The position numbers and the translations under genes are program-made. Below the pieces are notes generated by a model. The model was given only the letters and a program-made list of their open reading frames with translations, did not search any database and had not been told where the DNA came from. This document shows, in pieces, positions 1,110 to 14,007 of a DNA stretch of 61,435 nucleotides. Numbering within the stretch: position 1 is the first letter of the stretch; each line of letters begins with the position of its first letter. Source of the DNA: Clostridia bacterium (GTDB taxonomy: Bacteria; Bacillota; Clostridia; Oscillospirales; Acutalibacteraceae); the NCBI GenBank assembly GCA_017415515.1, contig JAFQGI010000025.1, forward strand, positions 1-61,435, in the 5' to 3' direction.

Positions 1110-1156
1110 CTTTTACTACATTGTATCACTCTATAAAGATTTATGCAAGGTTGGAA

Positions 1157-1344
1157 TGGCGAGACTTGAACTCTGCTTTGTGACCGAGAGTGGTGAAGCC
1201 TTCCCCTTGAGGGGAAGGTGGCTGCCCGTAGGGCAGACGGATGAGGTGGCAAAAATGGGTAGCAACCTCAATCCGCATTGTAGGGGGCGGCGCCTTCGAC
1301 GCCCCGAAAGAGGTTTGTGCAAATGCAGATGGAGACTTGAACTC
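1157..1344 (-). repeat. Two partial tRNA-Pro 3'-arm scars
   Basis: TGGCGAGACTTGAACTC at 1157-1173 is identical to 17 bases of the tRNA-Pro T arm/acceptor (13941-13957). GAGACTTGAACTC recurs at 1332-1344. With the att copy at 1502-1548 this gives three decreasing remnants in a row, which fits repeated integration and excision at the same tRNA. Confidence 0.6.
1198..1249. repeat. Two-hairpin palindromic repeat, copy 1
   Basis: A pyrimidine/purine hairpin (CCTTCCCCTTGAGGGGAAGG) is followed by a second palindrome (CTGCCCGTAGGGCAG) and a purine tail. The same architecture with different inner palindromes recurs at about nine places in the window. Confidence 0.7.
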
Positions 1345-1465: not shown

Positions 1466-1503
1466 AAAAAAGAGAGATGAGCAGATGCTCATCTCTCTTT
1501 TTT
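1466..1503 (-). terminator. Original downstream terminator of tRNA-Pro
   Basis: A stem of about 17 bp (1466-1483 with 1486-1503) with an AAAAAA/TTTTTT outer end lies directly against the att copy. On the minus strand it would follow the 3' CCA of an unoccupied tRNA-Pro, so it is probably the chromosomal terminator of that gene, separated from it by the island. Confidence 0.7.
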
Positions 1504-1548
1504 GGTCCGAGTGGCGAGACTTGAACTCACGGCCTCTTGACCCCCAGT
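1502..1548 (-). repeat. Distal attachment site copy of the tRNA-Pro island
   Basis: 47 bases identical to 13931-13977, the tRNA-Pro(GGG) gene from its anticodon loop through CCA. Identity stops abruptly at 1549. Together with the integrase-proximal copy it defines the ends of a 12.4-kb island. Crossover near the anticodon loop is usual for tRNA-targeting tyrosine integrases. Confidence 0.92.
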
Positions 1549-1883: not shown

Positions 1884-2942
1884 TTACTCATATCTCCCCT
1901 GAATATCGCTCAGGAATTGTTGGAACTCCTCCACTACTTCTGGTGGGCCGACGATGGTGGCTTTCTTGCGGAAACTGCACACCCAAGAGTAGAACATATT
2001 GCTGACCTCCACCGCCGCAGAAACGGTGAAGTGAGTGTCATCGTACTTGGTGTAGGTAGGCTCCGACGCACCGAAGCGTTCGATCACCGTGTCCAACAGG
2101 TCGTTGGTGAAACGGATTTGCACTCGCTTTTCCTCACCACCGAACATCGAGAACACCTTTTGGGTGTAGGTTCGCAAGTCGATTTTCTCGAACTCCTTGA
2201 TGCCCTCGCGTGGCGCGTCGGGGATTTCTTCAACGTCTCGCATGCGGTCGATTCGATAGTGGACAATCTTCTTGCCATTGTAGGCAATCAAATAGTAGTT
2301 GCCCTCCGTCACCAAGATCTTGAAAGGACTCAACACGTAGTCTTTGCCTCTACGTCGCGGAGTCTGCTCGGTGCGGTTCGACAAGGTGTGTTTGGTATAT
2401 TTGAATTTGATCTTGTGGTCGTTGCGGATGGCGCGGTTGATGACCTGCACGTAGTCGGGCAATCGGTTATTGCGGCTCTTGCCCCGATCGATCAGATAGG
2501 AGTCGCGCACCAGTTCGTCCGCTTGATACTCACTGCACTGTTCGGTCAGAGCATCCAGCAGACGTCCTTCTTGCTCCTTCGTGATGAAGCGAGAGGTGCA
2601 GACGCACTCCACCAATAGTTGGAGATCGCTCAGCGTGCATGGGCGTTTGACCACCTTGTAGCCTCGCTTGCCGGATCCGTCATACACGATTTTGTATTTG
2701 AACCGCTCGCCTTGATCGAAGCATTCTTCTTCGTCTCCTTCATAGAGGCGTTGCAGTTCCTTGATGTCGCGGCAGACGGAATGCTCACCGGATGTCACGC
2801 CATACTCATCCTCCAACAGTTCGACGATTTTCTCTGCACTGAGAGGGTGGTTCTCATCGGTGTGGCGGAGGAGTATCTGCCAAACCAAAAGAGACTTGAA
2901 CTTTTGACCCTCGCGGCGTCCTCCCAAATCTTGAATCGCCAT
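1884..2942 (-). CDS. WYL-domain transcriptional regulator (HTH + WYL)
   Basis: A 352-aa protein. Residues 1-70 form a winged-helix DeoR-like DNA-binding region (SLLVWQILLRHTDENHPLSAEKIVELLEDEYG). The middle is a WYL domain (KDYVLSPFKILVTEGNYYLIAYNG, HYRIDRMRDVEEI), followed by the usual C-terminal extension. WYL domains bind nucleic acid or nucleotide ligands and often control mobile or defence genes. The ATG at 2942 is chosen because AAAGGTGGT lies 7 nt upstream, while the alternative at 2963 sits almost on the -10 box. It is the outermost gene of the island and the only neighbour read towards the att site. The regulated target is unknown. Confidence 0.88.
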   Translation of the reverse strand: MAIQDLGGRREGQKFKSLLVWQILLRHTDENHPLSAEKIVELLEDEYGVTSGEHSVCRDIKELQRLYEGDEEECFDQGERFKYKIVYDGSGKRGYKVVKRPCTLSDLQLLVECVCTSRFITKEQEGRLLDALTEQCSEYQADELVRDSYLIDRGKSRNNRLPDYVQVINRAIRNDHKIKFKYTKHTLSNRTEQTPRRRGKDYVLSPFKILVTEGNYYLIAYNGKKIVHYRIDRMRDVEEIPDAPREGIKEFEKIDLRTYTQKVFSMFGGEEKRVQIRFTNDLLDTVIERFGASEPTYTKYDDTHFTVSAAVEVSNMFYSWVCSFRKKATIVGPPEVVEEFQQFLSDIQGRYE

Positions 2943-2971
2943 TATGCGCACCACCTTTCTCATTTGGATCC

Positions 2972-3090: not shown

Positions 3091-6000
3091 TTATCCGTTG
3101 TACTCCTCGTCGGAGGTGGCGGTGACGACCCGCTGAGGACCGTATACGGTCTCATCCAGAGCACCCACAATGTAGGTGTTGGTCAGGTCGCGGTCGTTGA
3201 GCACGCCCTTGGCCTTCAGGTTATGGAGACCATCGGCAGCGTAACGGCTGATGATCACCGAACCGTCCGCCTGAATGCGGAAGGTGGTCATGGTCAGGGT
3301 GCGATCCGCCTCAGAGCCGTGATTGGCGTAATAGCCCACGTAACCGGCGTTCATATAGGTGAAATTCAGCTCCACCTCAGAGGGAGCGTTCTTCACGCTG
3401 GCAGGATCGGCCACCAGGATGGAATCACCCTTGGCCAGATAGATGGAGCCGCCGCCAATGTAGGCGTCGTAGTCGCCGGAGTGGTTGTGGCCGAACAGGA
3501 AAATGATGTTCAGACCGGCCTCGCCGCCGGCGTTGAGAGCCTCTACGAGAGGCAGGGCGTTCTTAGCGCAGCTTTCGTCGATGGTACGGCGGCTGTAGTG
3601 CAGCGGCACGTGGCACAGCACAAAGATGGGCTTGTTGCCCCAGTCACTATTGACCTTCTCGTTGAAATAGGCGGTCAACTGATTGGCTACGGCAGCACTG
3701 CCGCCACCATAGGCGCTGTAATCATTCTCATTGATGACAAACACACCGTAGGGAGCACCCAGAGGATCCTTGGGACCGGTGGGAGAAATCAGCTCCACAG
3801 TAGGAGCGTCGTGGTTACCCTCGGTATAGACCTTGTTGCCATAGACCACGTCGGAGACGGCCGCATCCAGACTCTGAGTACCGGCAGTCGCCACGTCGTG
3901 ACCGGAACCGTATCCGTAGTCACCGATGAAGAAGAAGCCGTCAAACAGACCGTTAGCGGTTTCGGGCTTGGCGCCATTGAGCAGAGGCGTTACATCGGGG
4001 TCACCGGCGGCCTGGGTCTGCATCTGATAGTCGCCGCCTGCCAGCAGGATGGTCTCGGTCAGGTCGGTGACGCTGTAGGGACTGTTGGTGGCCTGTGCCG
4101 CGGCACGGCACAGATCAAAGTAGCAGGCGACAATCTCGTCAGGCTGCTCGGTAATGATATCCAGCGTCTCACCGGTCAGCGCCAAATACCACGCTACGGT
4201 AACGGCGTATTCCTTCTCTGCCTCGGTAGCAGCAGGACGGACGGTGTTCAAGTTGGCCAGCGTTGTAGCGGCAGGGATAACGCCGTCAGCGGTGGCGGCA
4301 GTAGCACTATAATACAGCACCTGTGCGCCAAAGGGCTTGTTGGCGATGGCCCATTCCAAATCGGCATCGTTAGTGACTACCACATACTGCCAGCGCTCAT
4401 CGGTGAGGACGGCGGAGGCATCGGAAGCGGAGGTGGTCCACACACCATTGTCGTCGTTCTTGTGATAGGTGGTGCCGTCCAGATGACCCAGGATGACCTG
4501 ATCGTACGCAGCGCTCTTGAGCACGTCGTACAGATAGGTATCCATCATGCCATAGGTAGCGGCATCGCCCACCATCAGCACCCGCTTGGTGCGACGGGCA
4601 ATCTCCACATCGGCGTAGTTGTCGCTGATGACGTCGCCGTAGATGGTGACAATCTCGTCACCAATCTGATAGGTATAGTAGGGACGGGCGTAGATCTCGG
4701 TGTTCACACCTTGATCGGGAATGTTGATGATACGCACGGCAAAGCCGATGGCATCCTCTTCCCAATCCAGCAGGTACTTAGCGGCAATCTTGATGGTGTT
4801 CTTGCCGTTTACTGCCTCCAGAGTCAGGTTGTCGCCGGACTGGTTGGATACCACAGCGCCGGTCTCCAGCAAGGTGCCGACAGCCTCGTCATACTGGAAC
4901 AACTTGACGGTACCGGTACCGCTCACATACTGGTTACCCTTAACGTACTGCGTGTTGTTTGCATTCAGGAAGAAGCGGAACGCCAGACCACGGTTGTCGT
5001 CATCGGTATCGCGGATGCTGACACCGCTATTGTCCAAGTTGTCTTCGCGATCCATTTCGTCGCCGGACAGGTTCTCGATCTTGATGTCGTCGATCCAAAC
5101 CTCGTCCTTGGTCTCCTTGCCGGAGCCGGAGAAGTTCAGGGTAGCGGAGGTGTTATAGGCAGACTTAAAGGTCTTCTCCACGTACACCCACTTGGCGCCG
5201 GTGCTACCGGTACCCAGATAAGCCGAAGCCAGGGTTTGGCCATCCACGTCACCCTTGATCGTGTAGTTAACACCATTGGAAATGGCTTTGTACCAGAAGG
5301 AAATCTTATAGGTCTTACCAACCTCCAGATTAAACTTCTGGTTCAGGGTGGCGCCCCAGCTGCCGTCACCGATCATCTTGGCGCCGTAGTCGCCGGTATA
5401 GGCGGCCTCGCCGGAAATCTCGGTAGACTGGTAGATATCCCATTTAGTCAGAGAACCGGCCTCAAAATCGCCGTTGTAGATATAGCCGTCATAGGAGGGC
5501 TCTTTCAGCTCGACCACGGCGGCAGAGTCCATATAGACGCTCTCGATGGTACCGTTACCGCCGCCGCAGATGTTGATGCGGGTGGTGGCGCCGGTAGCCA
5601 CAAAGTCCATAGACACCTTGGTCCAGTCGGTCACGTTGTACCACATAGAGGCGATGGTGGTGTTGCTGGCAACGTCCACAATCTGAATGTTGCAACCGTT
5701 GGAAATGGCCTTGAAGTAGGCAGAGAAGTTATATTTCTTACCCACCTCGGTGGTGAAATTCTGATAGAAAATACCATTCCAGGTGCCGTCACCCTTCAGG
5801 TGGGCACCGTAAGACCCTTCGTAGGCGGCATCGGAGGAAGCACCGGAGCCGTTATACCCATACCAAGGGGAGGCGTTACCGGTCTCAAAGGCGCCGTTCT
5901 CCAGTAGACCGTCGTCGGCAATCTCAACCACCGAAACGTCGTCCAGGTAGACGGTTTCGGTGACAGCCTTGCCGGAGGAGTGGAAGTTCACGTGCAGGGT

Positions 6001-7830
6001 GTTGGTGGTGGGGGTCACCACGTAGGCAACATAGGTCCACTCAGCCTTATCGTGCCAGCCGTTGGCTAGGGTGGTGCCGGAGGATCCGCCGTCCTGAATC
6101 TTGATGTTGGCACCGGTGGCAAGCACCTTCAGCCAGGCGGAGACCACGTAGGTCTTGCCAGGTTCTACGGTGACGTTCTGGTTGATCATACTGCCCCAGT
6201 TACCGGAACCGTTCAACTTCATACCGTAGGCGCCGTTCATCTTAGCCTCTTCGGTAACGGTAGAACCCTGATAGACGGTCCAGCCGGTGTTGTCGCCGGT
6301 CTCAAAGTCGCCGTTGGTCATCAGCGGAGCGGGATACACCTGAACGTCGTCCACGTAGATCAGGTTCTTGGTGGTGGAACTGTTGTGGAAGAAGTTCAGA
6401 TACAGAGCCGCCGCATCGGAGGTGACCTGATAGGTCATCTTGGTCCAGTCGGCTGCACCCAGAGAATCGTTAGCCAGAGCGGCGCCGGAGGAGTTGCCGT
6501 CCTTGATCTGGAAGTTGACGTTCTCGGTGACCGCCTTGTACCAGAAGGACACGATATAGGGCACGCCCTGCTCCACGGGAACGGTCTGGTACAGCAGACT
6601 GCCCCAGGAGGTCTCGCTGGACAGTTCGGCACCATAGTTACCGGTGTAGGCGGCATCAGCAGAAGCCTTGGTGTCACCGTAGACAGTCCAGCCCTTGGTG
6701 TCGCCGATCTCAAAGTCGCCGTTGGTCACCACGTTGCCGGGGACCACCGGCACCTCGCCGGGGGCCCAAGGATCTTCCGGCTCTTCGGGTTCAGGGTCGG
6801 GCTCGGTGCCCTCGTTGGGGTCGTACAGCACCACGTCGTCGAAGTAGAAGTTGCCGCCGGAACTGGCGGTCTTGTTCTGGAAGAACAGGGTGACGGAAGT
6901 GTAGCTGCCGGTGTTAAAGGTTACCGAGGCCTGTTGCCACGTGCCGGCAGGAGTGCCGTTGGCGGTCACGCTCTTAATGTCGGTGGAGCCGTTGCCCTTA
7001 ATGAACACATAGGCGCCGGCATTGGAAGCGGAACCGTCGTAGTAGTGCCAGAAGGTCAGCGTATAGTCGGTGTTGGCACTCAGGGTGATGGCCTTGGTTT
7101 TGATCATCGTCTGATATTGGTTGGCGGTGTTGCCGCTTTTCATGGCGTAGGTGCCGCCGTGGACGATGTCGGTGACGATGCTGGGACCATACCAGCTCTG
7201 ATCCCAGCCGGTATTGAAATCGCCGGTCTCGAAATCACCGTTTTCAATCAGGTTGGTGAAGGTGGGTTCGGGTTCCGGTTCCGGAACGTCACTACCGGTG
7301 ACGATCATAGATACGTCGTCAAAGTAGAAGGTGCCACCGGTGTTGGCGGTCTTGTTCTGCAGGAACAGGGTAACGCTGGTGTAAGAGCCGGAATTAAACT
7401 CCAACGTAGCCTTCTGCCAGGTGCGGGGATTGGCAGAGCCATTGGCAATCACATGGCTGATGTTGGTGCTGCCATTACCCTTGGCATACAGATAGGCACC
7501 TGCATCGGTACCGGAGCCGTCGTAGTAGTACCAGAAGGTCACCGTGTAGTCGGTGTTGGCTTCAACCGTGATGGCCTTGGTCTTAATCATGGTCTGGTAC
7601 TGGCTGGCGGTATTGGTGGTCTTCATAGCATACGTACCGCCGTGCACCACGTCGGTGACAATACTGGGAGCATACCAGCTCTGGTCCCATCCGGTGTTAA
7701 AATTACCGGTTTCAAAGTCGCCGTTTTCAATTAGATTAACCGCTGCGGCGGATACCATCGCGCCTGCAGGGATCAGGGAGCACAGCATCAGCATGGCGGC
7801 TAAAACGGCAATGAGTTTACGCAGTTTCAT
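3091..7830 (-). CDS. Secreted protein with six CBM-like modules and a C-terminal metallophosphoesterase domain
   Basis: A 1579-aa protein. A Sec signal peptide covers residues 1-30 (MKLRKLIAVLAAMLMLCSLI, then PAGAMVSAAA). Six tandem beta-sandwich modules of the CBM4/9-like kind follow, each opening with a variant of NGDFETG and closing with FYFDDV/VYLDDV: about 33-178, 193-345, 366-500, 503-637, 641-775 and 783-925. Modules 1-2 and 3-6 form two subfamilies, joined by Pro/Glu linkers (PEPEPEP). The C-terminal third carries calcineurin-like phosphoesterase motifs: GD (1303-1304), GNHD (1338-1341), CHVPLH (about 1405) and GHNH (1447-1450). The first DxH box is not obvious; LLAGGDYQ near 1270 may replace it. 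There is no LPXTG, SLH or dockerin, so it is probably released. The ribosome binding site is AAGGAGG. A role in binding glycans and removing phosphate at the cell surface is inference. Confidence 0.88.
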   Translation of the reverse strand: MKLRKLIAVLAAMLMLCSLIPAGAMVSAAAVNLIENGDFETGNFNTGWDQSWYAPSIVTDVVHGGTYAMKTTNTASQYQTMIKTKAITVEANTDYTVTFWYYYDGSGTDAGAYLYAKGNGSTNISHVIANGSANPRTWQKATLEFNSGSYTSVTLFLQNKTANTGGTFYFDDVSMIVTGSDVPEPEPEPTFTNLIENGDFETGDFNTGWDQSWYGPSIVTDIVHGGTYAMKSGNTANQYQTMIKTKAITLSANTDYTLTFWHYYDGSASNAGAYVFIKGNGSTDIKSVTANGTPAGTWQQASVTFNTGSYTSVTLFFQNKTASSGGNFYFDDVVLYDPNEGTEPDPEPEEPEDPWAPGEVPVVPGNVVTNGDFEIGDTKGWTVYGDTKASADAAYTGNYGAELSSETSWGSLLYQTVPVEQGVPYIVSFWYKAVTENVNFQIKDGNSSGAALANDSLGAADWTKMTYQVTSDAAALYLNFFHNSSTTKNLIYVDDVQVYPAPLMTNGDFETGDNTGWTVYQGSTVTEEAKMNGAYGMKLNGSGNWGSMINQNVTVEPGKTYVVSAWLKVLATGANIKIQDGGSSGTTLANGWHDKAEWTYVAYVVTPTTNTLHVNFHSSGKAVTETVYLDDVSVVEIADDGLLENGAFETGNASPWYGYNGSGASSDAAYEGSYGAHLKGDGTWNGIFYQNFTTEVGKKYNFSAYFKAISNGCNIQIVDVASNTTIASMWYNVTDWTKVSMDFVATGATTRINICGGGNGTIESVYMDSAAVVELKEPSYDGYIYNGDFEAGSLTKWDIYQSTEISGEAAYTGDYGAKMIGDGSWGATLNQKFNLEVGKTYKISFWYKAISNGVNYTIKGDVDGQTLASAYLGTGSTGAKWVYVEKTFKSAYNTSATLNFSGSGKETKDEVWIDDIKIENLSGDEMDREDNLDNSGVSIRDTDDDNRGLAFRFFLNANNTQYVKGNQYVSGTGTVKLFQYDEAVGTLLETGAVVSNQSGDNLTLEAVNGKNTIKIAAKYLLDWEEDAIGFAVRIINIPDQGVNTEIYARPYYTYQIGDEIVTIYGDVISDNYADVEIARRTKRVLMVGDAATYGMMDTYLYDVLKSAAYDQVILGHLDGTTYHKNDDNGVWTTSASDASAVLTDERWQYVVVTNDADLEWAIANKPFGAQVLYYSATAATADGVIPAATTLANLNTVRPAATEAEKEYAVTVAWYLALTGETLDIITEQPDEIVACYFDLCRAAAQATNSPYSVTDLTETILLAGGDYQMQTQAAGDPDVTPLLNGAKPETANGLFDGFFFIGDYGYGSGHDVATAGTQSLDAAVSDVVYGNKVYTEGNHDAPTVELISPTGPKDPLGAPYGVFVINENDYSAYGGGSAAVANQLTAYFNEKVNSDWGNKPIFVLCHVPLHYSRRTIDESCAKNALPLVEALNAGGEAGLNIIFLFGHNHSGDYDAYIGGGSIYLAKGDSILVADPASVKNAPSEVELNFTYMNAGYVGYYANHGSEADRTLTMTTFRIQADGSVIISRYAADGLHNLKAKGVLNDRDLTNTYIVGALDETVYGPQRVVTATSDEEYNG

Positions 7831-8209: not shown

Positions 8210-9058
8210 ATGTTTGTGAACCGCGCCGACTTGGGCCAACCTCACGCAGATATTGTGAATACCGAATTGCCGCTTCTGGTTACAGCTACAGGCCAATATC
8301 GTATGGATGGCAAACCGGAAATGCCCACCCATCGCCCTGACGGACGAGGGGATTATCAACTCATTTATATCGCTACGGGATGCGGTCACTTTGTGCTGGA
8401 TGGCAATGAGCAAATCCTGCAAAAAGGAACCGCCATTTTGTATCGGCCTAACGTGGTGCAAAATTACACCTTTTACGGCAAGGATGACGCCGAATACTAT
8501 TGGTGTCACTTCACCGGTAGCGAAGTAGAAAAGTTGTTGTCTGATTGTCATATTGCAGAGGACAGAATGGTGTTTTCCGCAGGCACGTCCTCGGATTTTC
8601 AGTGGCTATTTTTGCAGATGATACGCGAACTTCAGTTGAAACAAAGCGGATACGATACCATCTTGCCTATGAATCTGCGACACATCCTGCTGCTCATTAG
8701 CCGTCAACAAGCGGAAGAAAAAGCAGTCGGCAATAAAATACTGGGCGAAATCGAAAACGCCATTCGCCATTTCAATATGCATTTCCACTGGGATATTGAA
8801 ATTAAGGAATACGCTCAGCAGCATTTGATGTCCCCTTATTGGTTCTCCCAAAACTTTAAAAAGGTCACCGGCTGTTCTCCCGCTCAGTATCTCATCTCCC
8901 TGCGTATGGCCCACGCCATGAATTTGCTGGATAATACCGACGATACCGTGGCGCAGATCGCCCTGGCAGTGGGGTATGATAACACCCAGTATTTTTACCG
9001 CCTATTCCGCAACCATACCGGTATGACTCCGGTTGAATATAAGCAGAGAAAACGATAA
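8210..9058 (+). CDS. AraC-family transcriptional regulator
   Basis: A 282-aa protein. The N-terminal half is a cupin-like sensor (MPTHRPDGRGDYQLIYIATG, then GHFVLDG, with RPNVVQNYTFYGKDDAEYYW). The C-terminal 100 residues hold two helix-turn-helix motifs: IEIKEYAQQHLMSPYWFSQNF with KVTGCSPAQYLISLRM, and DDTVAQIALAVGYDNTQYFY ending in the family box GMTPVEYKQ. Such proteins sense sugars or surface glycan fragments. It is divergent from the peptide/CBM operon across 220 bp, so it most likely controls that operon; the inducer is unknown. A hairpin terminator follows. Confidence 0.93.
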   Translation: MFVNRADLGQPHADIVNTELPLLVTATGQYRMDGKPEMPTHRPDGRGDYQLIYIATGCGHFVLDGNEQILQKGTAILYRPNVVQNYTFYGKDDAEYYWCHFTGSEVEKLLSDCHIAEDRMVFSAGTSSDFQWLFLQMIRELQLKQSGYDTILPMNLRHILLLISRQQAEEKAVGNKILGEIENAIRHFNMHFHWDIEIKEYAQQHLMSPYWFSQNFKKVTGCSPAQYLISLRMAHAMNLLDNTDDTVAQIALAVGYDNTQYFYRLFRNHTGMTPVEYKQRKR

Positions 9059-9071
9059 GGATTCCGAACAT

Positions 9072-9108
9072 AGAGAAAGGCTGGAGAGTTGTTCTCCAGC
9101 CTTTCTCT
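9072..9108. terminator. Bidirectional terminator between araC-type and recombinase genes
   Basis: A 16-bp perfect stem (AGAGAAAGGCTGGAGA / TCTCCAGCCTTTCTCT) separates the convergent genes and touches the recombinase stop codon. Confidence 0.85.
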
Positions 9109-9674
9109 TATGCCTCTCTTTTCGCACGGATCAACGTGCTTTTGCTGATACCAGTCATGGTGGTGATCTGGCGATAGGTCTTGCCTTCCGCCAGAAGTGA
9201 TAGAGCAAGGTCGATCTGCTCCGACGTAAACTTCTTCGGTCTGCCGTCCTTGAAACTCGGATCTTGCCTTGCAACCGCTTTTCCGGTCTGGGTGCGTTCA
9301 ACTATCATTCCCCTTTCATATTCGGCAAACGCAAGCATGACCGTCAGAATGAGGTTTCCCGTCAAGGTGTTCTCGATTAGTCCCATATTGAGAATGTGGA
9401 CTCTGATGCCTCGCTCAAAGAGTTCGCGTACCGTCTGCACTCCCTCGATTGCTGTTCTGGCAAATCGGTCGAGTTTGGACACCACCAAAGTGTCGCCCTC
9501 TTCGAGTTGCTCCAAGAGCGAAAGGAACTTCGGTCGCTCCATCGTCTTCCCCGTGAACGCCTCTTTGACTATCTCTTGGCATCCATACTTTTCGAGAGCC
9601 GTCACTTGGTCTTCGAGACTGTTTCCATCTCTTCCTTGAGTAGTAGTCGAGACGCGTGCGTAGCCGTAAATCAT
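9108..9674 (-). CDS. Serine recombinase (resolvase/invertase family)
   Basis: 188 aa. The N-terminal catalytic domain has YARVSTTTQ with the nucleophilic Ser, then [25 protein letters not shown] and [19 protein letters not shown]. The C-terminus is a small resolvase helix-turn-helix ([19 protein letters not shown]). This is the short resolvase/invertase architecture, not a large serine integrase. The start at 9674 (MIYGYARVS) has GGAGG 9 nt upstream and matches the family; longer forms reach back into an inverted repeat. It lies in a tyrosine-integrase island, so a role in dimer resolution or inversion is more likely than integration. A candidate recombination/operator site lies just upstream at 9702-9770. 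Confidence 0.92.
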
Positions 9675-9701
9675 AGCAATTTTCCTCCATTTCGTGACAC
9701 T

Positions 9702-9770
9702 AAGTTCTGACACCGATTTTGGATTTTTGGTCCGGTGTTTTGGCACCATCCGCCATCGGTGTCAGAACTT
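9702..9770. repeat. 16-bp inverted repeat upstream of the resolvase gene
   Basis: AAGTTCTGACACCGAT (9702-9717) and its exact reverse complement (9755-9770) enclose 37 bp that contain further short GGTGTTTTGGCACC-like symmetry. Resolvase-family recombinases often act at sites directly upstream of their own genes, so this is a candidate res site that could also serve in autoregulation. Confidence 0.6.
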
Positions 9771-9793
9771 TTGAGTTTTGGTGCGGTTCTCGA

Positions 9794-10069
9794 TTAGGCA
9801 ATCGAGAACCGTCTGCTGGTCACTTGCTTGGTGAAGGCTTTGTACAAATCACCGTGCACCTTCTTGAAGGAAGTGCTATCGAAACGATTGGACAGCACCG
9901 AAGTCCAGCGGATGATGTAAGTGCCGACTTCCATCTCTTCGGTGTTGTTGTTCAGCATCTCTTCTTTGATTCTGTCGCGGAGTGCCTCGGCCTCCGCCTG
10001 AGCCTCAGCGATGATGTTCTCCCACTCGGAAAGGGCCTCGATTTTTGCAATCAGTTCGTTCTTAGACAT
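9794..10069 (-). CDS. Small acidic coiled-coil protein of mobile elements, function unknown
   Basis: 91 aa. Residues 1-50 are a charged, Ala/Glu-rich helix (SEWENIIAEAQAEAEALRDR). The second half reads YIIRWTSVLSNRFDSTSFKK and ends in TKQVTSRRFSI. The shape and the 'RWTxVxSxRFDxxxFKK...RRFxI' pattern recur in small proteins of Clostridial phages and conjugative islands, some linked to Gam-like or nuclease-inhibitor genes; I can only call it conserved hypothetical. AAAGGAG precedes the ATG. Its promoter (10119-10147) is overlapped by one of three 18-bp operators, so it is under the divergent Cro-like regulator. Confidence 0.7.
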   Translation of the reverse strand: MSKNELIAKIEALSEWENIIAEAQAEAEALRDRIKEEMLNNNTEEMEVGTYIIRWTSVLSNRFDSTSFKKVHGDLYKAFTKQVTSRRFSIA

Positions 10070-10118
10070 AATGTTGTTCTCCTTTGTTGTTGATATTGTG
10101 TTCGTTTGAACTGTCTTT

Positions 10119-10147
10119 ATTATACACTAATTCTCGTGTATTGTCTA
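10119..10147 (-). promoter_or_regulatory. Promoter of the coiled-coil gene
   Basis: Minus-strand TAGACA (10142-10147), 17-bp spacer, TATAAT (10119-10124). The spacer is filled by operator 1. Confidence 0.75.
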
Positions 10148-10209
10148 TTGACATAGTACACGAATGTTGGTGTATCTTTTTGTGCACATTGTACACTTGA
10201 TTTCGTGTA
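10123..10209. promoter_or_regulatory. Three 18-bp operators TACAC-N8-GTGTA
   Basis: TACACTAATTCTCGTGTA (10123-10140), TACACGAATGTTGGTGTA (10157-10174) and TACACTTGATTTCGTGTA (10192-10209). Starts are 34 and 35 bp apart. Site 1 sits in the leftward promoter and site 3 covers the -35 of the rightward promoter, the layout of a lysogeny-type switch. The obvious ligand is the HTH protein encoded at 10254. Confidence 0.85.
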
Positions 10210-10224
10210 TATTTGTGGTATAAT
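10197..10224 (+). promoter_or_regulatory. Promoter of the Cro/CI-like gene
   Basis: TTGATT (10197-10202), 16-bp spacer, TATAAT (10219-10224). The -35 lies inside operator 3. Confidence 0.75.
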
Positions 10225-10253
10225 GATAGTATCATGGGAAAGGAGTCTTCATT

Positions 10254-10457
10254 ATGGGTTTGCAGTACAAAATGGATGTGGTTTCCGCACTGAAAGAGAA
10301 AGGAATCACATCTTATAAAATCAGAAGCGAGAAGTTGCTCAGCGAATCGACTCTCCAGAAGTTGAGAAAAGGTGAAGGTGTGTCTTGGGACAACCTCGAA
10401 ACACTGTGCCGTCTCTTGGAGTGCCAGCCGTCGGATCTGATAGAGTACGTGGAGTGA
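10254..10457 (+). CDS. Cro/CI-type HTH regulator of the island
   Basis: 67 aa, almost entirely one XRE-type helix-turn-helix domain: MDVVSALKEKGITSYKIRSE, then LLSESTLQKLRKGEGVSWDN with LETLCRLLECQPSDLIEYVE. This is the small HTH_26-like class. It has no second domain. It is transcribed away from the coiled-coil gene across three TACAC-N8-GTGTA operators, so it most likely represses both promoters, including its own, and sets the island's quiet or active state. The start follows AAAGGAG at good spacing. Confidence 0.88.
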   Translation: MGLQYKMDVVSALKEKGITSYKIRSEKLLSESTLQKLRKGEGVSWDNLETLCRLLECQPSDLIEYVE

Positions 10458-10654
10458 CGGTGGGGGATGGGTTTCGGGAAGTTCAGCTGAAATTTGCGTT
10501 TTTGCGGTTTGGTCTGGCCCACAAAAATCCCCACAGCATTTTTGATCCGGAGGACGGTCTTTGTGGGCGTTCTCGAAAGAATGGAATCTCTCCGTGATCA
10601 CGGGGAAAACGAAGAAAACGGCGACCGTCTCCAATACGGAGTGGTCGCCGTTTA
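10458..10654. other. Gene-free stretch ending in a terminator
   Basis: No credible gene on either strand apart from the hairpin at 10616-10653. Confidence 0.6.
10616..10653. terminator. Bidirectional hairpin terminator
   Basis: The stem AAACGGCGACC / GGTCGCCGTTT sits between the HTH gene and the convergent amber-interrupted small gene, ending 1 nt from the latter's stop codon. Confidence 0.8.
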
Positions 10655-10786
10655 TCATTTGAAGTCTTTGAAGATGTCGTCGAGTGCTTGGTCGATGGTC
10701 TTTTTCAAACTCTTGCGAATGACGTCGTATAGCATCATTTCAATCAGACTTTCCTATTTCTTGCGTTTCTTCTTTTTGTCGCTCAT
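10655..10786 (-). pseudogene. 43-codon small gene with an in-frame TAG at codon 11
   Basis: It starts with an ATG that overlaps the TGA of the upstream gene (ATGA), so translation is probably coupled. It reads MSDKKKKRKK, TAG (10754-10756), then ESLIEMMLYDVIRKSLKK and TIDQALDDIFKDFK to a TGA directly before a terminator. The frame stays open after the TAG and forms a sensible amphipathic helix, and Gln would fit the position (CAG to TAG is one change). Either it is a 10-aa peptide, a recently broken gene, or a gene read through at TAG. The island's other amber-bearing gene makes the last worth testing. Confidence 0.55.
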
Positions 10787-10977
10787 TTTTTCACCTTACC
10801 TTCGATAACGATGTTCATGGGTTCGTCGTCTTCCTCTCGGCTCTCGGCAAATTTGCGTTGTCGAGCACGCACTTGCTCGGCATAGTTTTCCCAAGCGGAT
10901 TTGCCGTTGAGCGCATGCCAAATGCGGTCTGGGACTTTACCTGCCTCGCGAGCACGGATGAGTTCTTGATTGGGCAT
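10783..10977 (-). CDS. 64-aa mobile-element protein of unknown function
   Basis: MPNQELIRAREAGKVPDRIW, then HALNGKSAWENYAEQVRARQ and an acidic, basic-ended tail. The ATG at 10977 has GAAAGGAGG at the right distance; longer in-frame starts run through untranslated-looking sequence. It is soluble, highly charged and has no recognised domain. It forms a two-gene unit with the amber-containing small gene through an ATGA overlap. Upstream lies an inverted repeat GACGGGC/GCCCGTC at about 11030-11083 that might be a long-loop hairpin in its leader. Confidence 0.65.
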   Translation of the reverse strand: MPNQELIRAREAGKVPDRIWHALNGKSAWENYAEQVRARQRKFAESREEDDEPMNIVIEGKVKK

Positions 10978-11088
10978 GTGTTGCCCTCCTTTCTTGTGGA
11001 TTTCTCTCATAAAATAATAAAAGACGGGCAAGTCCGATGAATGGGTATTGACCAATAATGCCGACAACCCAGACCGACGCCCGTCGCT

Positions 11089-11117
11089 TTGATTTTCTTG
11101 TAAATTTTTGGTATAAT
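11089..11117 (+). promoter_or_regulatory. Promoter of the amber-interrupted replication-type gene
   Basis: TTGATT (11089-11094), 17-bp spacer, TATAAT (11112-11117), then AAAAAGGAG and ATG at 11180. Confidence 0.8.
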
Positions 11118-11179
11118 GTATGTAGTAAAAGGGAGAAAATCCCTTCCAGAAATTTAAGAGAAAAAGGAGAAATGCAATT

Positions 11180-11767
11180 ATGCCCAATCAACAAAATGAG
11201 CAATTTTATACCGTCCCCAATTAGAGGGTGGTAAAGGTAAACAAAGAGGAACTCGGAGGCAACTTTTTAGGTGTCAACAATGAAGTGTGGTCGGCGGCGG
11301 CACGTGACCTCGGTGCCCACGCTCTGATGTTGTATCTGTACTTCGCCGCCAACAGAAACGGTTATTCGTTTGCTTTGTCTCCGGCGGCTATCCAATAGGC
11401 CATCGGAATGCCTCGTTCCACCTATCGAGACCAGTTTGTCAAACTGGTGAGCAAAGGGTATCTGGTTCAGACCGGAGGCAACACCTTTGCTTTTTATGAG
11501 AAACCGCAACCGCGTGTCGTTCAACCCAATTTGAATACGGTGGCGGCAACCGGACGCTCATTTGAAGAGTGCACGATAACCGCTATCCCCACCACGGATA
11601 CCGTTAATTCAAGAACGGAATGGAACAGAGAAATAAATAATAGAGAGTTTCAAGATAATGGTTGGATAAATATTAGAGAGGTTGGAGCCTCTGGGGACTT
11701 CATCCCGGCACCAGAAGAGAAAGAAAGAGAGGGCGCTGCGGATTGGCAGCGCGAGTTTATTTTCTGA
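11180..11767 (+). pseudogene. Winged-helix (replication-type) gene with two in-frame TAG codons
   Basis: 195 codons from ATG (AAGGAG upstream) to TGA, with TAG at codons 15 (11222-11224) and 73 (11396-11398) and no TAA, TGA or frameshift. The reading is MPNQQNEQFYTVPN-TAG-RVVKVNKEELGGNFLGV... then FALSPAAIQ-TAG-AIGMPRSTYRDQF. The middle is a typical wHTH (AARDLGAHALMLYLYFAANR; MPRSTYRDQFVKLVSKGYLV) like that of replication/regulatory proteins of Clostridial mobile elements. Gln suits both positions. A good promoter, ribosome binding site and terminator are intact, which is unusual for a dead gene. Either CAG-to-TAG decay or amber read-through. Confidence 0.75.
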
Positions 11768-11770
11768 TAT

Positions 11771-11801
11771 GTAGGGGGCGTGCTTCGGCACGCTCCTTTT
11801 T
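11771..11801 (+). terminator. Terminator of the amber-interrupted gene
   Basis: GCGTGC-TTCG-GCACGC core with flanking pairs (about 11 bp), a UUCG tetraloop and TTTTT. Confidence 0.88.
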
Positions 11802-11822
11802 GTATACGCTTTTGGAGGGAAT

Positions 11823-12254
11823 TTAAGCCGCGCGATCGAGGTAACGCGGCACTTTCGTCATGACGGTCGTGCCGTCCTCCTCGGCGAAGAACATCCGCAG
11901 AGCATAGCAATCCGGAAACTGCTTAAAGAACCAAGAGCGAACGTAGGCATAGGGACTCTTTTCTTTCTTGGACTCCTCTTGGACCAGAGCAAAGGTGGTC
12001 AACAACTCCTCGGCATGATCCTGCACTCGAATATAGCGCTCCATATTCTTGTAGGTCAGACGGCGAGAGTGATGAGGCGCCTTTGCCTTGCGACCCGATT
12101 CCACAACCAACTTCATGCCAGGGTTTTCAGCGAGAATTTCACGCACTTTGTTATACTCAGGCGAGCCGTGCTCATTCGCCATACGACTGCATTTGTAGTT
12201 TAGGGTCAGAGTGTTTTTTGCCAGATCAATCTTAAAAGTGAAGTGCTTATCCAT
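11823..12254 (-). CDS. Island protein of unknown function, paralogue 1
   Basis: 143 aa, starting MDKHFTFKIDLAKNTLTLNY. It shares order and motifs with the next gene upstream: a short beta-rich start, G(S/T)PE(Y/F) followed by a P-G-(M/I)-x-(L/M)-V-V strand, YxxMExYI, a helix ending in EE/MKKV, then a R-Y-V/A-W-F-x-x-x-FP motif. The pair are clearly ancient duplicates; I recognise no named domain. It is rich in Lys, Glu and aromatic residues and looks soluble. It is the distal gene of a two-gene unit. Stop TAA. Confidence 0.75.
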   Translation of the reverse strand: MDKHFTFKIDLAKNTLTLNYKCSRMANEHGSPEYNKVREILAENPGMKLVVESGRKAKAPHHSRRLTYKNMERYIRVQDHAEELLTTFALVQEESKKEKSPYAYVRSWFFKQFPDCYALRMFFAEEDGTTVMTKVPRYLDRAA

Positions 12255-12273
12255 TTTTGTTATCTCCTTTCAA

Positions 12274-12687
12274 TTACGCGGACTTCTTTTCGGGCATGGA
12301 AACGACCTTGCTGCTCTCTGCAGCCTGCTCATCTTCTTGGAAGATGTCAGAGGTCTTGTAATTGGGGAACATGCTCTCAAACCAAGCCAGCACATAACGA
12401 TGGGGGTTGCGCTGAATCTTGGAGCGCTCACGCACTTTCTTCATCTCAGCGAGAATCGCCTCGGCGTTATCGAAAGTGTTGATGTACTTCTCCATCTTCG
12501 CATAGGTGGTGTTGTAGATGTCGCTCGTGCGATTAGACTTCACAACAACCATCGTGATACCGGGGAACTCGTTGCGAATCTCACGCCACTGACGGAACTC
12601 AGGAGTACCGTAGATGGTGGCTTGCTTCTGGAAAGCCTTGGTGACGATAGCCTCATTGGTTTCGAAGTTGATTTTGACAGTTTTCAT
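12274..12687 (-). CDS. Island protein of unknown function, paralogue 2
   Basis: 137 aa from ATG at 12687 (MKTVKINFETNEAIVTKAFQ); a TTG nine bases earlier is a weaker start given AAAGGA placement. It contains GTPEFRQWREIRNEFPGITM, MEKYINTFDNAEAILAEMKK and RYVLAWFESMFPNY. The same scaffold is seen in the protein at 11823-12254, 19 bp downstream, which suggests a tandem duplication. A minus-strand TATAAT at 12768-12773 is the likely -10. Function unknown; such paired small proteins are common in integrative elements near replication genes. Confidence 0.75.
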   Translation of the reverse strand: MKTVKINFETNEAIVTKAFQKQATIYGTPEFRQWREIRNEFPGITMVVVKSNRTSDIYNTTYAKMEKYINTFDNAEAILAEMKKVRERSKIQRNPHRYVLAWFESMFPNYKTSDIFQEDEQAAESSKVVSMPEKKSA

Positions 12688-12840
12688 TTGGATCAATTCC
12701 TTTCATAAATATAATTTTAATTTTCGTTCAGTGGAGGGCTCTGTCGTTCCCTTCACCTTACACACACATTATAGCACACCACCCCGAAAGTGCGCTCCCA
12801 TAATGTGGAGCGGACTAAAATTTTTCAAAAATATAAAAAG

Positions 12841-12870
12841 AAAAAGGCAGGTTTTTCACCTGCCTTTTTT
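12841..12870 (-). terminator. Terminator of the island integrase
   Basis: AAAAAGGCAGGT, a short loop and ACCTGCCTTTTTT lie 19 nt after the integrase TGA. The run of A and T on either side makes it bidirectional. Confidence 0.9.
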
Positions 12871-12888
12871 CGTGTGCTCGAACCGTCC

Positions 12889-13836
12889 TCAACGACGGCG
12901 CAAAGAGATGGTTTCGTCCCGCCTCCGCATCTGCTCCAGAGGGGAAACGTTATCGAAGTTCCGCACGATGTCCACGTTAAACACCGCGCAATAATGCTTG
13001 GTCATATCCAACGTACTGTGTCCCAATATCTTTTGGAGGGTGAACGCGTCCCCTCCGCAATCAAGGAGATACTTGCGAGCAAACGTGTGTCGGAACATGT
13101 GCAAACTGGTCTTTTGGATGCCGCGTGCCGTATTGTACCGCACGATAGCCGACCGCAAGCACCCCTCGGACATGGGCGTGCCGGTCTCGGTGCAGAAGAG
13201 CGCGTCGCACTCCTCACCACCACGAAAACGGAGATACTCACGGAGAATGCGAATCATCGCCCCGCACAAAGGGACGACTTGCGCCCGATGGTTTTTGTTG
13301 TGTCGGTAGTGGATGAGTCCGTTCTCCAAGTCCACGTCACGGATCTGGATGGCGCGTACCGTCGCCGCACGACTCCCACTGTTCAGCAGAAAGTTGATAA
13401 TCACCCAGTCGCGATATTCGCCGAAAGAACACTTGCGTATGTCCGGCTTTTGGAGGAGTACTTCCAGCTCCTTGTCGGTGTAGGTGTCCTTCACCGTCTC
13501 TTCGCCACGGTAGATGGGGATATTCAGTGACGTAATCCCCTCTTGATTGCACCACGACAGAAAGGATTTGAGCATTTTGGTGTAGCTGTTGATACTATTG
13601 GGGGACAGTCCGGCGTCTCTCATGCTCGCTATCATCTTGTCTAAGTCCGATTTACACAGATCTACAATGTCTTGCTCTACGTTTAGATGTCGCGACACTG
13701 CCTGAAAGTGATTGACATAACTGTGTATTGTTTTGTTCACCAGTCCTTTGGCTCTCTTGGCACTGATGAATTCGGCAAAGACGTTCGCCACGGTATTGCC
13801 TTGCTGAAGTTTGATTCTTGCCATAATTTCATGCAC
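12889..13836 (-). CDS. int: Tyrosine recombinase (integrase) of the tRNA-Pro island
   Basis: 315 aa. An N-terminal SAM-like core-binding domain (TVANVFAEFISAKRAKGLVN through about residue 105) is followed by the catalytic domain: first Arg in NSGSRAATVRAI, Lys region in HYRHNKNHRAQVVPL, HMFRHTFA with His and Arg, and GHSTLDMTKHYCAVF with His and nucleophilic Tyr. It is XerC-like in size. It lies 95 bp from the 3' end of tRNA-Pro, the normal place for an integrase acting on that tRNA, and three copies of the 16-mer TGCAC(T/G)C(T/C)TGACTTTT at the two island ends are candidate arm sites. The start codon itself adjoins one arm site, so binding could limit its own expression. Confidence 0.95.
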   Translation of the reverse strand: MHEIMARIKLQQGNTVANVFAEFISAKRAKGLVNKTIHSYVNHFQAVSRHLNVEQDIVDLCKSDLDKMIASMRDAGLSPNSINSYTKMLKSFLSWCNQEGITSLNIPIYRGEETVKDTYTDKELEVLLQKPDIRKCSFGEYRDWVIINFLLNSGSRAATVRAIQIRDVDLENGLIHYRHNKNHRAQVVPLCGAMIRILREYLRFRGGEECDALFCTETGTPMSEGCLRSAIVRYNTARGIQKTSLHMFRHTFARKYLLDCGGDAFTLQKILGHSTLDMTKHYCAVFNVDIVRNFDNVSPLEQMRRRDETISLRRR

Positions 13837-13876
13837 TCCTGACTTTTGGATTTGTGATGAAAAGTCAAGCGTGCAG
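13832..13876. promoter_or_regulatory. Inverted pair of integrase arm-type sites
   Basis: TGCACTCCTGACTTTT (13832-13847) and, inverted, TGCACGCTTGACTTTT (13861-13876). A third copy is at 1624-1639 at the other island end. Confidence 0.7.
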
Positions 13877-13898
13877 TAAAAAGGCGTTCAGATATAGA

Positions 13899-13931
13899 AA
13901 AAAGCCGTAACTCCTAAGAGTTACGGCTTCT
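13899..13931 (-). terminator. Island-supplied terminator downstream of tRNA-Pro
   Basis: A stem of about 12 bp (AAGCCGTAACTC / GAGTTACGGCTT) directly after the tRNA CCA replaces the chromosomal terminator that was displaced to 1466-1503. Confidence 0.8.
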
Positions 13932-13977
13932 TGGTCCGAGTGGCGAGACTTGAACTCACGGCCTCTTGACCCCCAGT
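13931..13977 (-). repeat. Integrase-proximal attachment site copy
   Basis: 47 bp identical to 1502-1548, running from the anticodon loop to one base past CCA within tRNA-Pro. Confidence 0.92.
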
Positions 13978-14007
13978 CAAGCGCGCTACCAACTGCGCCA
14001 CACCCGG
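13932..14007 (-). tRNA. tRNA-Pro(GGG)
   Basis: 76 nt with encoded CCA. The acceptor CCGGGTG pairs with CACTCGG (one G-U), D loop AGTTGGTAGC, anticodon stem CTTGA/TCAAG with loop CTGGGGG, so the anticodon is GGG, and a T arm with GAGTTCAAGTCTC. The gene is intact; its 3' 47 bases are duplicated at 1502-1548, so it is the integration target of the island and has been restored by it. Confidence 0.97.

What the first reader, a model, noticed from the sequence alone, without database searches (positions are those of the whole stretch)
10655..11767. Three in-frame TAG codons in two island genes, all where Gln would fit
The gene at 11180-11767 has TAG at codons 15 and 73, and the small gene at 10655-10786 has TAG at codon 11, with no TAA, TGA or frameshift. 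Promoter, ribosome binding sites, ATGA coupling and terminators are intact. From memory of related wHTH proteins, both positions in the large gene (after VPN; after PAAIQ) tend to be Gln, one base from TAG. Every complete gene of the island ends with TAA or TGA, none with TAG, whereas host and prophage genes do use TAG (19502, 41436, 60107). Amber recoding or suppression, known in some gut phages as TAG-to-Gln, would explain this. Ordinary decay by CAG-to-TAG mutation is the alternative; the 315-aa integrase and the 1579-aa gene have no TAG, which argues against general recoding.
Basis: partly seen in the sequence, partly recalled or inferred. Interest (0 to 1): 0.8.

Follow-up and report, generated by a model that had tools for sequence, protein, structure and literature searches.

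The report
Amber-coded genes in gut mobile elements
Small mobile DNA elements of gut bacteria keep part of their genes in a variant genetic code, where the stop signal TAG apparently means glutamine, although no matching decoder tRNA was found in the elements or in the host genomes checked, so the decoder probably comes from outside, perhaps from a recoded virus.

Summary
The three in-frame TAGs are real and are not decay. Homologues of 11180-11767 in other genera, another family and a rat-gut plasmid also carry in-frame TAG. At codon 15, TAG recurs in six copies counting the window, and the 16 aligned relatives without it have Gln. Sequence beyond the TAG is under purifying selection (dN/dS 0.03-0.27 in six pairs of TAG-bearing copies). 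The gene belongs to a wider module on integrative elements and small plasmids: 66 TAGs in 4,688 codons of 35 module genes, among them a terminase small subunit, an HNH endonuclease and a helicase, against 0 in 7,824 codons of 34 integrase, resolvase, Rep and other maintenance genes. No CTA tRNA was found in the elements or in the hosts checked, and no PylS over cut-off. Two sampled hosts end about 3% of ORFs with TAG. Best reading: TAG = Gln, and the module is translated in full only when a suppressor tRNA comes from outside, most likely from a TAG-recoded phage. No helper was found; phage dependence is inferred.

The parts
1502..1548 (.). attachment-site repeat (fragment of tRNA-Pro 3' part), likely left end of the element
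   Evidence: 47 bp identical to 13931-13977 (98% over 50 bp)
13931..13977 (.). attachment-site repeat overlapping tRNA-Pro(ggg) 13932-14007, likely right end of the element
12889..13836 (-). tyrosine integrase, 315 aa, no TAG
   Evidence: PF00589 E=1.8e-24; phrog_1 5.8e-44
12274..12696 (-). 140-aa ORF, looks by eye like a paralogue of the next and like ORFs of related elements; no TAG
   Evidence: no family match over cut-off; relatives read
11823..12254 (-). 143-aa ORF, no TAG
11089..11117 (+). promoter-like site upstream of gene B (TTGATT-17-TATAAT, extended TG)
   Evidence: 9 such sites found in 9000-14000, 5.3 expected in shuffles
11180..11767 (+). gene B: wHTH-type protein weakly like phage replication initiators; TAG at codons 15 (11222-11224) and 73 (11396-11398)
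   Evidence: (phrog_270 E=1.3e-5)
11773..11798 (+). terminator-like hairpin after gene B
10783..10977 (-). 64-aa ORF, overlaps the small gene by ATGA; resembles by eye the N-terminal half of a 100-aa protein of plasmid pRGI00071
10655..10786 (-). small gene with TAG at codon 11 (10754-10756); C-terminus resembles by eye proteins of pRGI00071 and L060
10254..10457 (+). Cro/C1-type regulator (HTH_26), no TAG
   Evidence: PF13443 E=2.9e-15
9794..10069 (-). 91-aa protein, no TAG
   Evidence: phrog_6244 E=6.8e-14
9108..9749 (-). serine resolvase/invertase, no TAG
   Evidence: PF00239 E=3.3e-35; phrog_125
3091..7830 (-). 1579-aa ORF inside the att repeats (cargo), no TAG; no family search done
1884..2963 (-). 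WYL-domain regulator, no TAG; similar ORFs by eye in L042 and L060
   Evidence: PF13280 E=1e-10

Best explanation
In these elements TAG is a glutamine codon, but only in one set of genes. Genes that keep the element in the cell (integrase, serine resolvase, Rep initiator, regulators) are written in the standard code and can be made at any time. A second module (wHTH gene B, small genes A and C, and on relatives a nuclease-like gene, HNH and GIY-YIG-like endonucleases, a phage-type terminase small subunit and a helicase) carries in-frame TAG and can be made in full only when something supplies an amber suppressor tRNA charged with Gln. Shown: TAG often sits at Gln positions, the sequence behind it is under selection, the maintenance genes counted avoid TAG, and no decoder tRNA was found in the elements or in the host genomes checked. 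Inferred: the decoder is brought in by a TAG-recoded (code 15) phage, so the module is locked at translation until such a phage infects, and the elements act as satellites or hitch-hikers of these phages.
For: Codon-15 column of gene B: TAG in the window, L037, L038, L039, L040 (near copy of L039, left out of the counts) and the rat plasmid pRGF00006, Gln in 16 of 16 others; the 14 TAG columns hold Gln in 53 of 246 other residues against 152 of 3,557 overall; 5 of 14 have modal Gln against 10 of 211 columns, hypergeometric P=1.3e-4. dN/dS after the first TAG site 0.03-0.27 in the six pairs of L037, L038, L039, L040; TerS 0.23 and 87-aa gene 0.095 between plasmids pRGI00117 and pRGI00100. TAG at the same site in the nuclease-like gene of pRGI00117 and of integrative element L060, and in the 87-aa gene of the two plasmids. 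66 TAG in 4,688 codons of 35 module genes, all 35 ending TAA or TGA; 0 in 7,824 codons of 34 maintenance genes. A recoded ORF of pRGI00117 is a terminase small subunit, phrog_2538 E=1e-27. No CTA tRNA among 38, 33 and 29 distinct tRNAs read in G138, G145, G653, which had 43, 35 and 35 Infernal matches; none of 7 pattern hits in 9 hosts is a CTA tRNA; no CTA tRNA in the element loci or records. Host ORFs end with TAG in 8 of 286 (G145) and 10 of 298 (G138). Up to 6 TAGs in 127 codons could hardly be passed by weak leakage. TAG-to-Gln phages are called particularly prevalent for Firmicutes and Bacteroidetes hosts (PMC9523058, passages).
Against: No helper phage and no suppressor tRNA was identified. 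Eight viral-contig scans with B, TerS, the nuclease-like and the 87-aa genes gave L150, L212, L214, L215 or nothing; the B-like genes of L150, L214 and L215 have no TAG. The phage collection gave nothing for B or the nuclease-like gene and only distant TerS relatives (28-36%, 10 records, their code not examined). Hosts are draft genomes (68-97% complete where told), so a resident suppressor could be missed. TerS was seen on rat plasmids, not on the window's element. Twelve B homologues have no TAG, so recoding is not essential to the protein. In 9 of 14 TAG columns the commonest residue is not Gln (V, K, H, A, D, P, N, N and a tie of E and L). The L205 gene ends at a TAA 113 codons in, earlier than most copies, which could be a variable tail or a premature stop. 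The module list holds nearly only genes in which TAG was seen, so the contrast with maintenance genes is partly by selection, and one maintenance-type ORF with a TAG near its C-terminus (L205 9427-9864; by eye its natural stop) was left out. Restart of translation behind early TAGs was not tested; it could not explain TAGs deep in genes.
Confidence: 0.55

Rival explanations
1. TAG = Gln supplied in trans as above, but the module is an anti-phage response: nucleases and wHTH proteins are translated only when a recoded phage brings its suppressor tRNA, so the phage's own code switch triggers the defence.
For: HNH endonucleases and, by eye, GIY-YIG-like and nuclease-like genes are among the TAG-bearing ones; same TAG evidence as the best explanation.
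Against: TerS and a helicase in the same kind of module fit a satellite better; no defence-model (PADLOC) search was run.
Confidence: 0.15
2. TAG = Gln, decoded by a suppressor tRNA resident in the hosts (chromosome, resident prophage or another plasmid) that the incomplete genomes lack.
For: Hosts are drafts (68-97% complete where told); the tRNA sets read lack some standard tRNAs too; TAG is a rare stop in two sampled hosts (2.8% and 3.4%), which would make resident suppression cheap.
Against: No CTA tRNA by pattern in 9 hosts or among 38, 33 and 29 tRNAs of three hosts; the maintenance genes counted in the same elements have no TAG, which constant suppression would not require.
Confidence: 0.13
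3. Leaky reading of TAG by normal host tRNA-Gln keeps costly genes at a trickle: the TAGs are damping stops.
For: Mild excess of TAG towards gene starts (24, 17, 16, 9 by quarter; KS p=0.014; sites are not independent); own-genome tRNA-Gln(ctg) shows 4 of 5 anticodon-stem pairs.
Against: Genes with 4-6 TAGs in 127-203 codons would give practically no product (arithmetic); the mismatch is next to the loop, not the top pair discussed in PMC13092985 (passages); the five tRNA-Gln stems read in G138, G145 and G653 have 5 pairs.
Confidence: 0.09
4. Decay: pseudogenes with nonsense mutations.
Against: The stops inside matches are TAG only; the one TAA flagged is the terminal stop. The same TAG is kept in copies with synonymous divergence 0.26-0.97 and dN/dS below 0.3; signals around the window gene look intact.
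Confidence: 0.03
5. TAG encodes pyrrolysine.
For: Pyrrolysine is inserted at UAG in some Clostridia (recalled).
Against: No PylS match over the cut-off in 11 of 11 host genomes (weaker matches in 9), while 1 of 14 control genomes scored over it; aligned residues at codon 15 are Gln.
Confidence: 0.01

Closest known systems
Genetic-code-15 phages (TAG to Gln; crAss-like and other gut phages)
   Same: TAG read as Gln in part of the genes; PMC9523058 (abstract and passages) reports TAG-to-Gln peptides and use of the code late in infection, prevalent in phages of Firmicutes and Bacteroidetes
   Different: These are plasmids of 5-8 kb and integrative elements of about 5-12 kb in which no CTA tRNA was found, and no capsid or tail gene was recognised in the ORFs scanned
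Phage satellites (PICI, P4-like, PICMI; names from search listings and recall)
   Same: Small elements with att repeats at tRNA genes, integrase, regulator and wHTH replication-type protein; a terminase small subunit on two plasmid relatives
   Different: A module written with in-frame TAG; the listings of the paper searches showed no such satellite (several listings were capped)
Small plasmids of the rat cecum metamobilome (PMC3913684, passages)
   Same: Source of circular gut plasmids; that pRGF00006, pRGI00117 and pRGI00100 come from this work is recalled from their names. pRGI00117 has a Rep3 initiator (PF01051 E=1.6e-33)
   Different: The paper's main text has no occurrence of 'stop codon', 'genetic code' or 'amber'; CDS listed for these records are shorter than the TAG-bearing frames

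Membership tests
Code-15 recoded genes | in-frame TAG at positions that are Gln in relatives | tested here: met
   16 of 16 at codon 15; 53 of 246 residues over all 14 TAG columns against 152 of 3,557 overall; 9 of 14 columns have another modal residue
Code-15 recoded genes | TAG not used as terminator in the recoded genes | tested here: met
   35 of 35 module genes end TAA or TGA, though genes were read to the first TAA or TGA
Code-15 recoded phage | own CTA suppressor tRNA | tested here: not met
   no CTA tRNA in the element loci or records; some elements are cut by contig ends
Code-15 recoded phage | virion genes on the element | tested here: inconclusive
   none recognised among 10 ORFs of the window element scanned; the ORFs at 3091 and 8210 were not scanned
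Phage satellite | integrase and att repeats, small size | tested here: met
   47-bp and 52-bp att repeats in window and L041; integrase of the window by Pfam and PHROGs
Phage satellite | gene that redirects phage packaging | tested here: inconclusive
   TerS on pRGI00117 (phrog_2538) and its homologue on pRGI00100; none seen among the scanned ORFs of the window element
Phage satellite | mobilised by a helper phage | not testable with these tools
   no helper found; needs particles or infection
Pyrrolysine decoding | PylS in the host | tested here: not met
   0 of 11 host genomes over the cut-off; drafts

The most novel reading that the evidence does not exclude
Amber-locked satellites: small gut plasmids and integrative elements whose replication-type and packaging genes are written in the code of TAG-recoded phages, so that the helper's suppressor tRNA itself is the induction signal and the lock is at translation instead of at a repressor. 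TAG-bearing and TAG-free versions of the same module would then track whether the helper is recoded.
Probability: 0.4. Interest if true: 0.95.

Novelty: new variant of a known kind. Interest (0 to 1): 0.87.

Why it matters
TAG-to-Gln recoding is known from phages that bring their own suppressor tRNA. Here it appears on plasmids and integrative elements in which none was found, split by gene function. If right, one phage's code switch can be read by other elements in the cell, as a trigger for satellites or for defence, and standard annotation cuts these genes into fragments, as in the plasmid records seen here. It also gives a handle on why recoded phages keep a code switch.

Tried and rejected
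Own-genome CTA tRNA: 27 tRNAs over cut-off plus a few more by ARAGORN, none CTA. Pattern for CTA tRNAs in 9 hosts: 7 hits, which are tRNA-Leu variable arms (5) or not tRNAs (2); the pattern assumes ordinary T-loops. PylS: none over cut-off. Host readthrough: three TAG-ended ORFs with long open extensions were looked at; by eye two are adjacent ordinary genes and the third a frame shadow. TAG-recoded prophage in about 800 kb sampled from G145 and G138: none seen, but the scan also missed the known L041 gene, so it is insensitive. Helper search in viral contigs, 8 scans: L150, L212, L214, L215 only; L215 (17 kb, 11.6 kb held) has a Rep3-type initiator, terminase, by eye portal and head genes, and an HNH gene with 4 TAGs; no tRNA in the full records behind L150, L214 and L215; ARAGORN found none in L212. 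A solved-structure search with the pRGI00100 helicase gave nothing useful; the remark that one of its TAGs falls at the Gln of SF2 motif VI (E-TAG-VLGRIRGD) rests on a recalled motif. Left out of counts: L063 was misparsed (11 residues); L040 was dropped there as a near copy of L039; G261 (L008, distant, 1 TAG) and G036 (L006) were not put into that alignment; L205 9427-9864 (TAG near its end) was not; further TAG-bearing ORFs of pRGI00117 and pRGI00100 seen were not. One search counted 61 module TAGs with two mis-set gene ends; one search corrects these and adds L036 A, L040 C and L215 HNH. In several loci, TAGs in maximal frames upstream of the likely start were taken by eye as non-coding.

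Full report
OBSERVATION. The finding is correct. Gene 11180-11767 (+) has TAG at codons 15 and 73 and no other internal stop; the small gene at 10655-10786 is on the minus strand, with TAG at codon 11. Promoter-like site, ribosome site and terminator-like hairpin are in place. The element is larger than the reported span: a 47-bp exact repeat of the tRNA-Pro 3' part at 1502-1548 and 13931-13977 frames about 12.4 kb with integrase, resolvase, HTH_26 regulator, WYL regulator and a 1579-aa ORF. The window is one contig of a 1.5-Mb draft genome in 39 contigs, 68% complete.

RELATIVES ALSO CARRY TAG. A search of 300 genomes of the family with X at the TAGs found 8 with a match, counting the window's own genome. 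Three close ones in other genera have in-frame TAG (L002, L003, L004), and L002 and L004 have it at the very codon of the window's first TAG; a distant one (G261) also has one TAG. A second family search (398 genomes) added no new carrier. A genome-contig scan gave 8 loci from MAGs, six of them named after ruminant samples; L037, L039 and L041 are the same places as L002, L004 and L003. Class and order searches (391 and 394 genomes) added G653 (another family, 1 TAG), G763 (none), G1082 (2 TAG), G1092 (3 TAG) and seven others; the '1 TAA' of G1018 is the terminal stop of the L042 gene, whose match runs past it. In plasmids, pRGF00006 has a 36% relative with 6 TAGs. In the alignment, B homologues with TAG are the window, L037, L038, L039, L040, L041, L060, L205, L209 and L051; without TAG L036, L042, L043, L061, L062, L150, L202, L203, L204, L206, L207 and L208; L063 was misparsed. 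L036 has its TAG in gene A instead. The L205 gene ends at a TAA 113 codons in, shorter than most.

TAG STANDS WHERE GLN STANDS. In that alignment the column of codon 15 is Gln in 16 of 16 relatives without TAG. Over all 14 TAG columns, Gln makes up 53 of 246 residues against 152 of 3,557 overall, and 5 of 14 have modal Gln against 10 of 211 columns (P=1.3e-4). Two columns carry TAG in two distant relatives each (window 73 with L051 68; L041 79 with L205 76) and have modal Gln. Nine of 14 columns have another modal residue (V, K, H, A, D, P, N, N, and a tie of E and L). This is counter-evidence to a Gln-only picture, but it is what one expects if TAG is an ordinary Gln codon free to appear at variable sites. 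In other genes, TAG faces Gln in the nuclease-like gene (L060 against pRGI00117) and in TerS (pRGI00117 against pRGI00100), and elsewhere K, R, D, E and I.

SELECTION. Codons after the first TAG site of gene B evolve under purifying selection between TAG-bearing copies: L039/L040 dN/dS 0.03, L038/L039 0.14, L038/L040 0.15, L037/L038 0.20, L037/L039 and L037/L040 0.27. Five gene A pairs give 0.18-0.28; the other five are saturated. Between the plasmids pRGI00117 and pRGI00100, TerS gives 0.23 and the 87-aa gene 0.095. A dead gene would not show this.

WHICH GENES. In one search, 35 module genes hold 66 TAGs in 4,688 codons and end in TAA (24) or TGA (11). In one search, 34 maintenance genes of the same kind of elements (integrases, resolvases, Rep initiators, WYL and HTH regulators, a SprT-type gene and small ORF families) hold none in 7,824 codons with 315 Gln codons; one of them, the L041 resolvase, ends in TAG, and I cut it there. 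The module list was built nearly only from genes in which TAG had been seen (L039 C is the one without), so the contrast is inflated; the zero in the other class is not, apart from one left-out ORF (L205 9427-9864, TAG near its C-terminus). Module genes outside the window include an HNH endonuclease (phrog_59, 5 TAGs), a terminase small subunit (phrog_2538, E=1e-27, 2 TAGs), a ResIII/DEAD helicase (5 TAGs) and, named by eye only, a GIY-YIG-like and a PD-(D/E)XK-like nuclease. The CDS listed for the plasmid records are shorter than these frames; the listing is known to be incomplete.

WHO READS TAG. No CTA tRNA was seen in the element loci or records; the tRNAs found in those loci read sense codons. 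In G138, G145 and G653 (97, 97 and 95% complete) I read 38, 33 and 29 distinct tRNA sequences out of 43, 35 and 35 matches, none with CTA. A CTA pattern in nine hosts hit seven places, none a CTA tRNA. PylS is below cut-off in 11 of 11. In samples of about 400 kb each, 8 of 286 (G145) and 10 of 298 (G138) ORFs of 150 aa or more end with TAG; in the flanks of seven element loci 3 of 57 do. TAG is thus a rare but real stop. The decoder is therefore probably not in the cell all the time. TAG-to-Gln phages are known and prevalent for Firmicutes hosts (PMC9523058, abstract and passages), and PMC10879173 (abstract and passages) treats their suppressor tRNAs. Such a phage is the simplest outside source, and TerS among the recoded plasmid genes points to phage packaging. 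This last step is inference: none of the 8 viral-contig scans and none of the phage-collection searches turned up a recoded phage with these genes. One viral record (L215) combines a Rep3-type initiator, a B-like gene without TAG, terminase and an HNH gene with 4 TAGs.

ALTERNATIVES. Leaky host reading fails for genes with 4-6 TAGs. A resident suppressor in the unsequenced part of the drafts remains possible. A defence module triggered by the phage's suppressor tRNA has the same sequence evidence as a satellite. Decay and pyrrolysine are not supported. Restart of translation after early TAGs was not tested.

NOVELTY. Paper searches for recoded satellites, plasmids or integrative elements and for suppressor-triggered modules (open-licence PMC papers only; judged from titles and abstract starts, and the listings were capped) listed none. 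The nearest known things are code-15 phages and phage satellites; this looks like a combination of the two, hence a new variant of a known kind.

Noticed in passing
window 1149-1173, 1332-1344 and 220-235: Further partial copies of tRNA-Pro sequence lie left of the att repeat, suggesting several past integrations in tandem at this tRNA.
   Followed up: no
L041 6668-6688, 6755-6768, 6949-7000: The G138 element also shows extra partial att copies beside the 52-bp pair (6949-7000 and 11785-11836), again perhaps tandem remnants.
   Followed up: partly
L215 (IMGVR_UViG_3300012979_000249): 17-kb viral record with Rep3-type initiator, terminase and, by eye, portal and head genes without TAG, but an HNH gene with 4 in-frame TAGs: possibly a phage-plasmid relative.
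   Followed up: partly
L212 (IMGVR_UViG_3300032030_002743): 9.6-kb record that looks by eye like a satellite (primase-helicase type ORF, terminase-like and integrase-like ORFs), apparently in the standard code.
   Followed up: no
G145 and G138 samples (L151-L190): TAG ends only about 3% of host ORFs of 150 aa or more, lower than in the host part of the window (4 of 31).
   Followed up: partly
window 3091-7830: A 1579-aa ORF with repeated stretches lies inside the att repeats as cargo; its role in the element is unclear.
   Followed up: no
L038 and L039: Both elements start beside the same rubrerythrin-like gene (by eye) and share resolvase, integrase and module, so they seem to use the same site in two genomes.
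   Followed up: no
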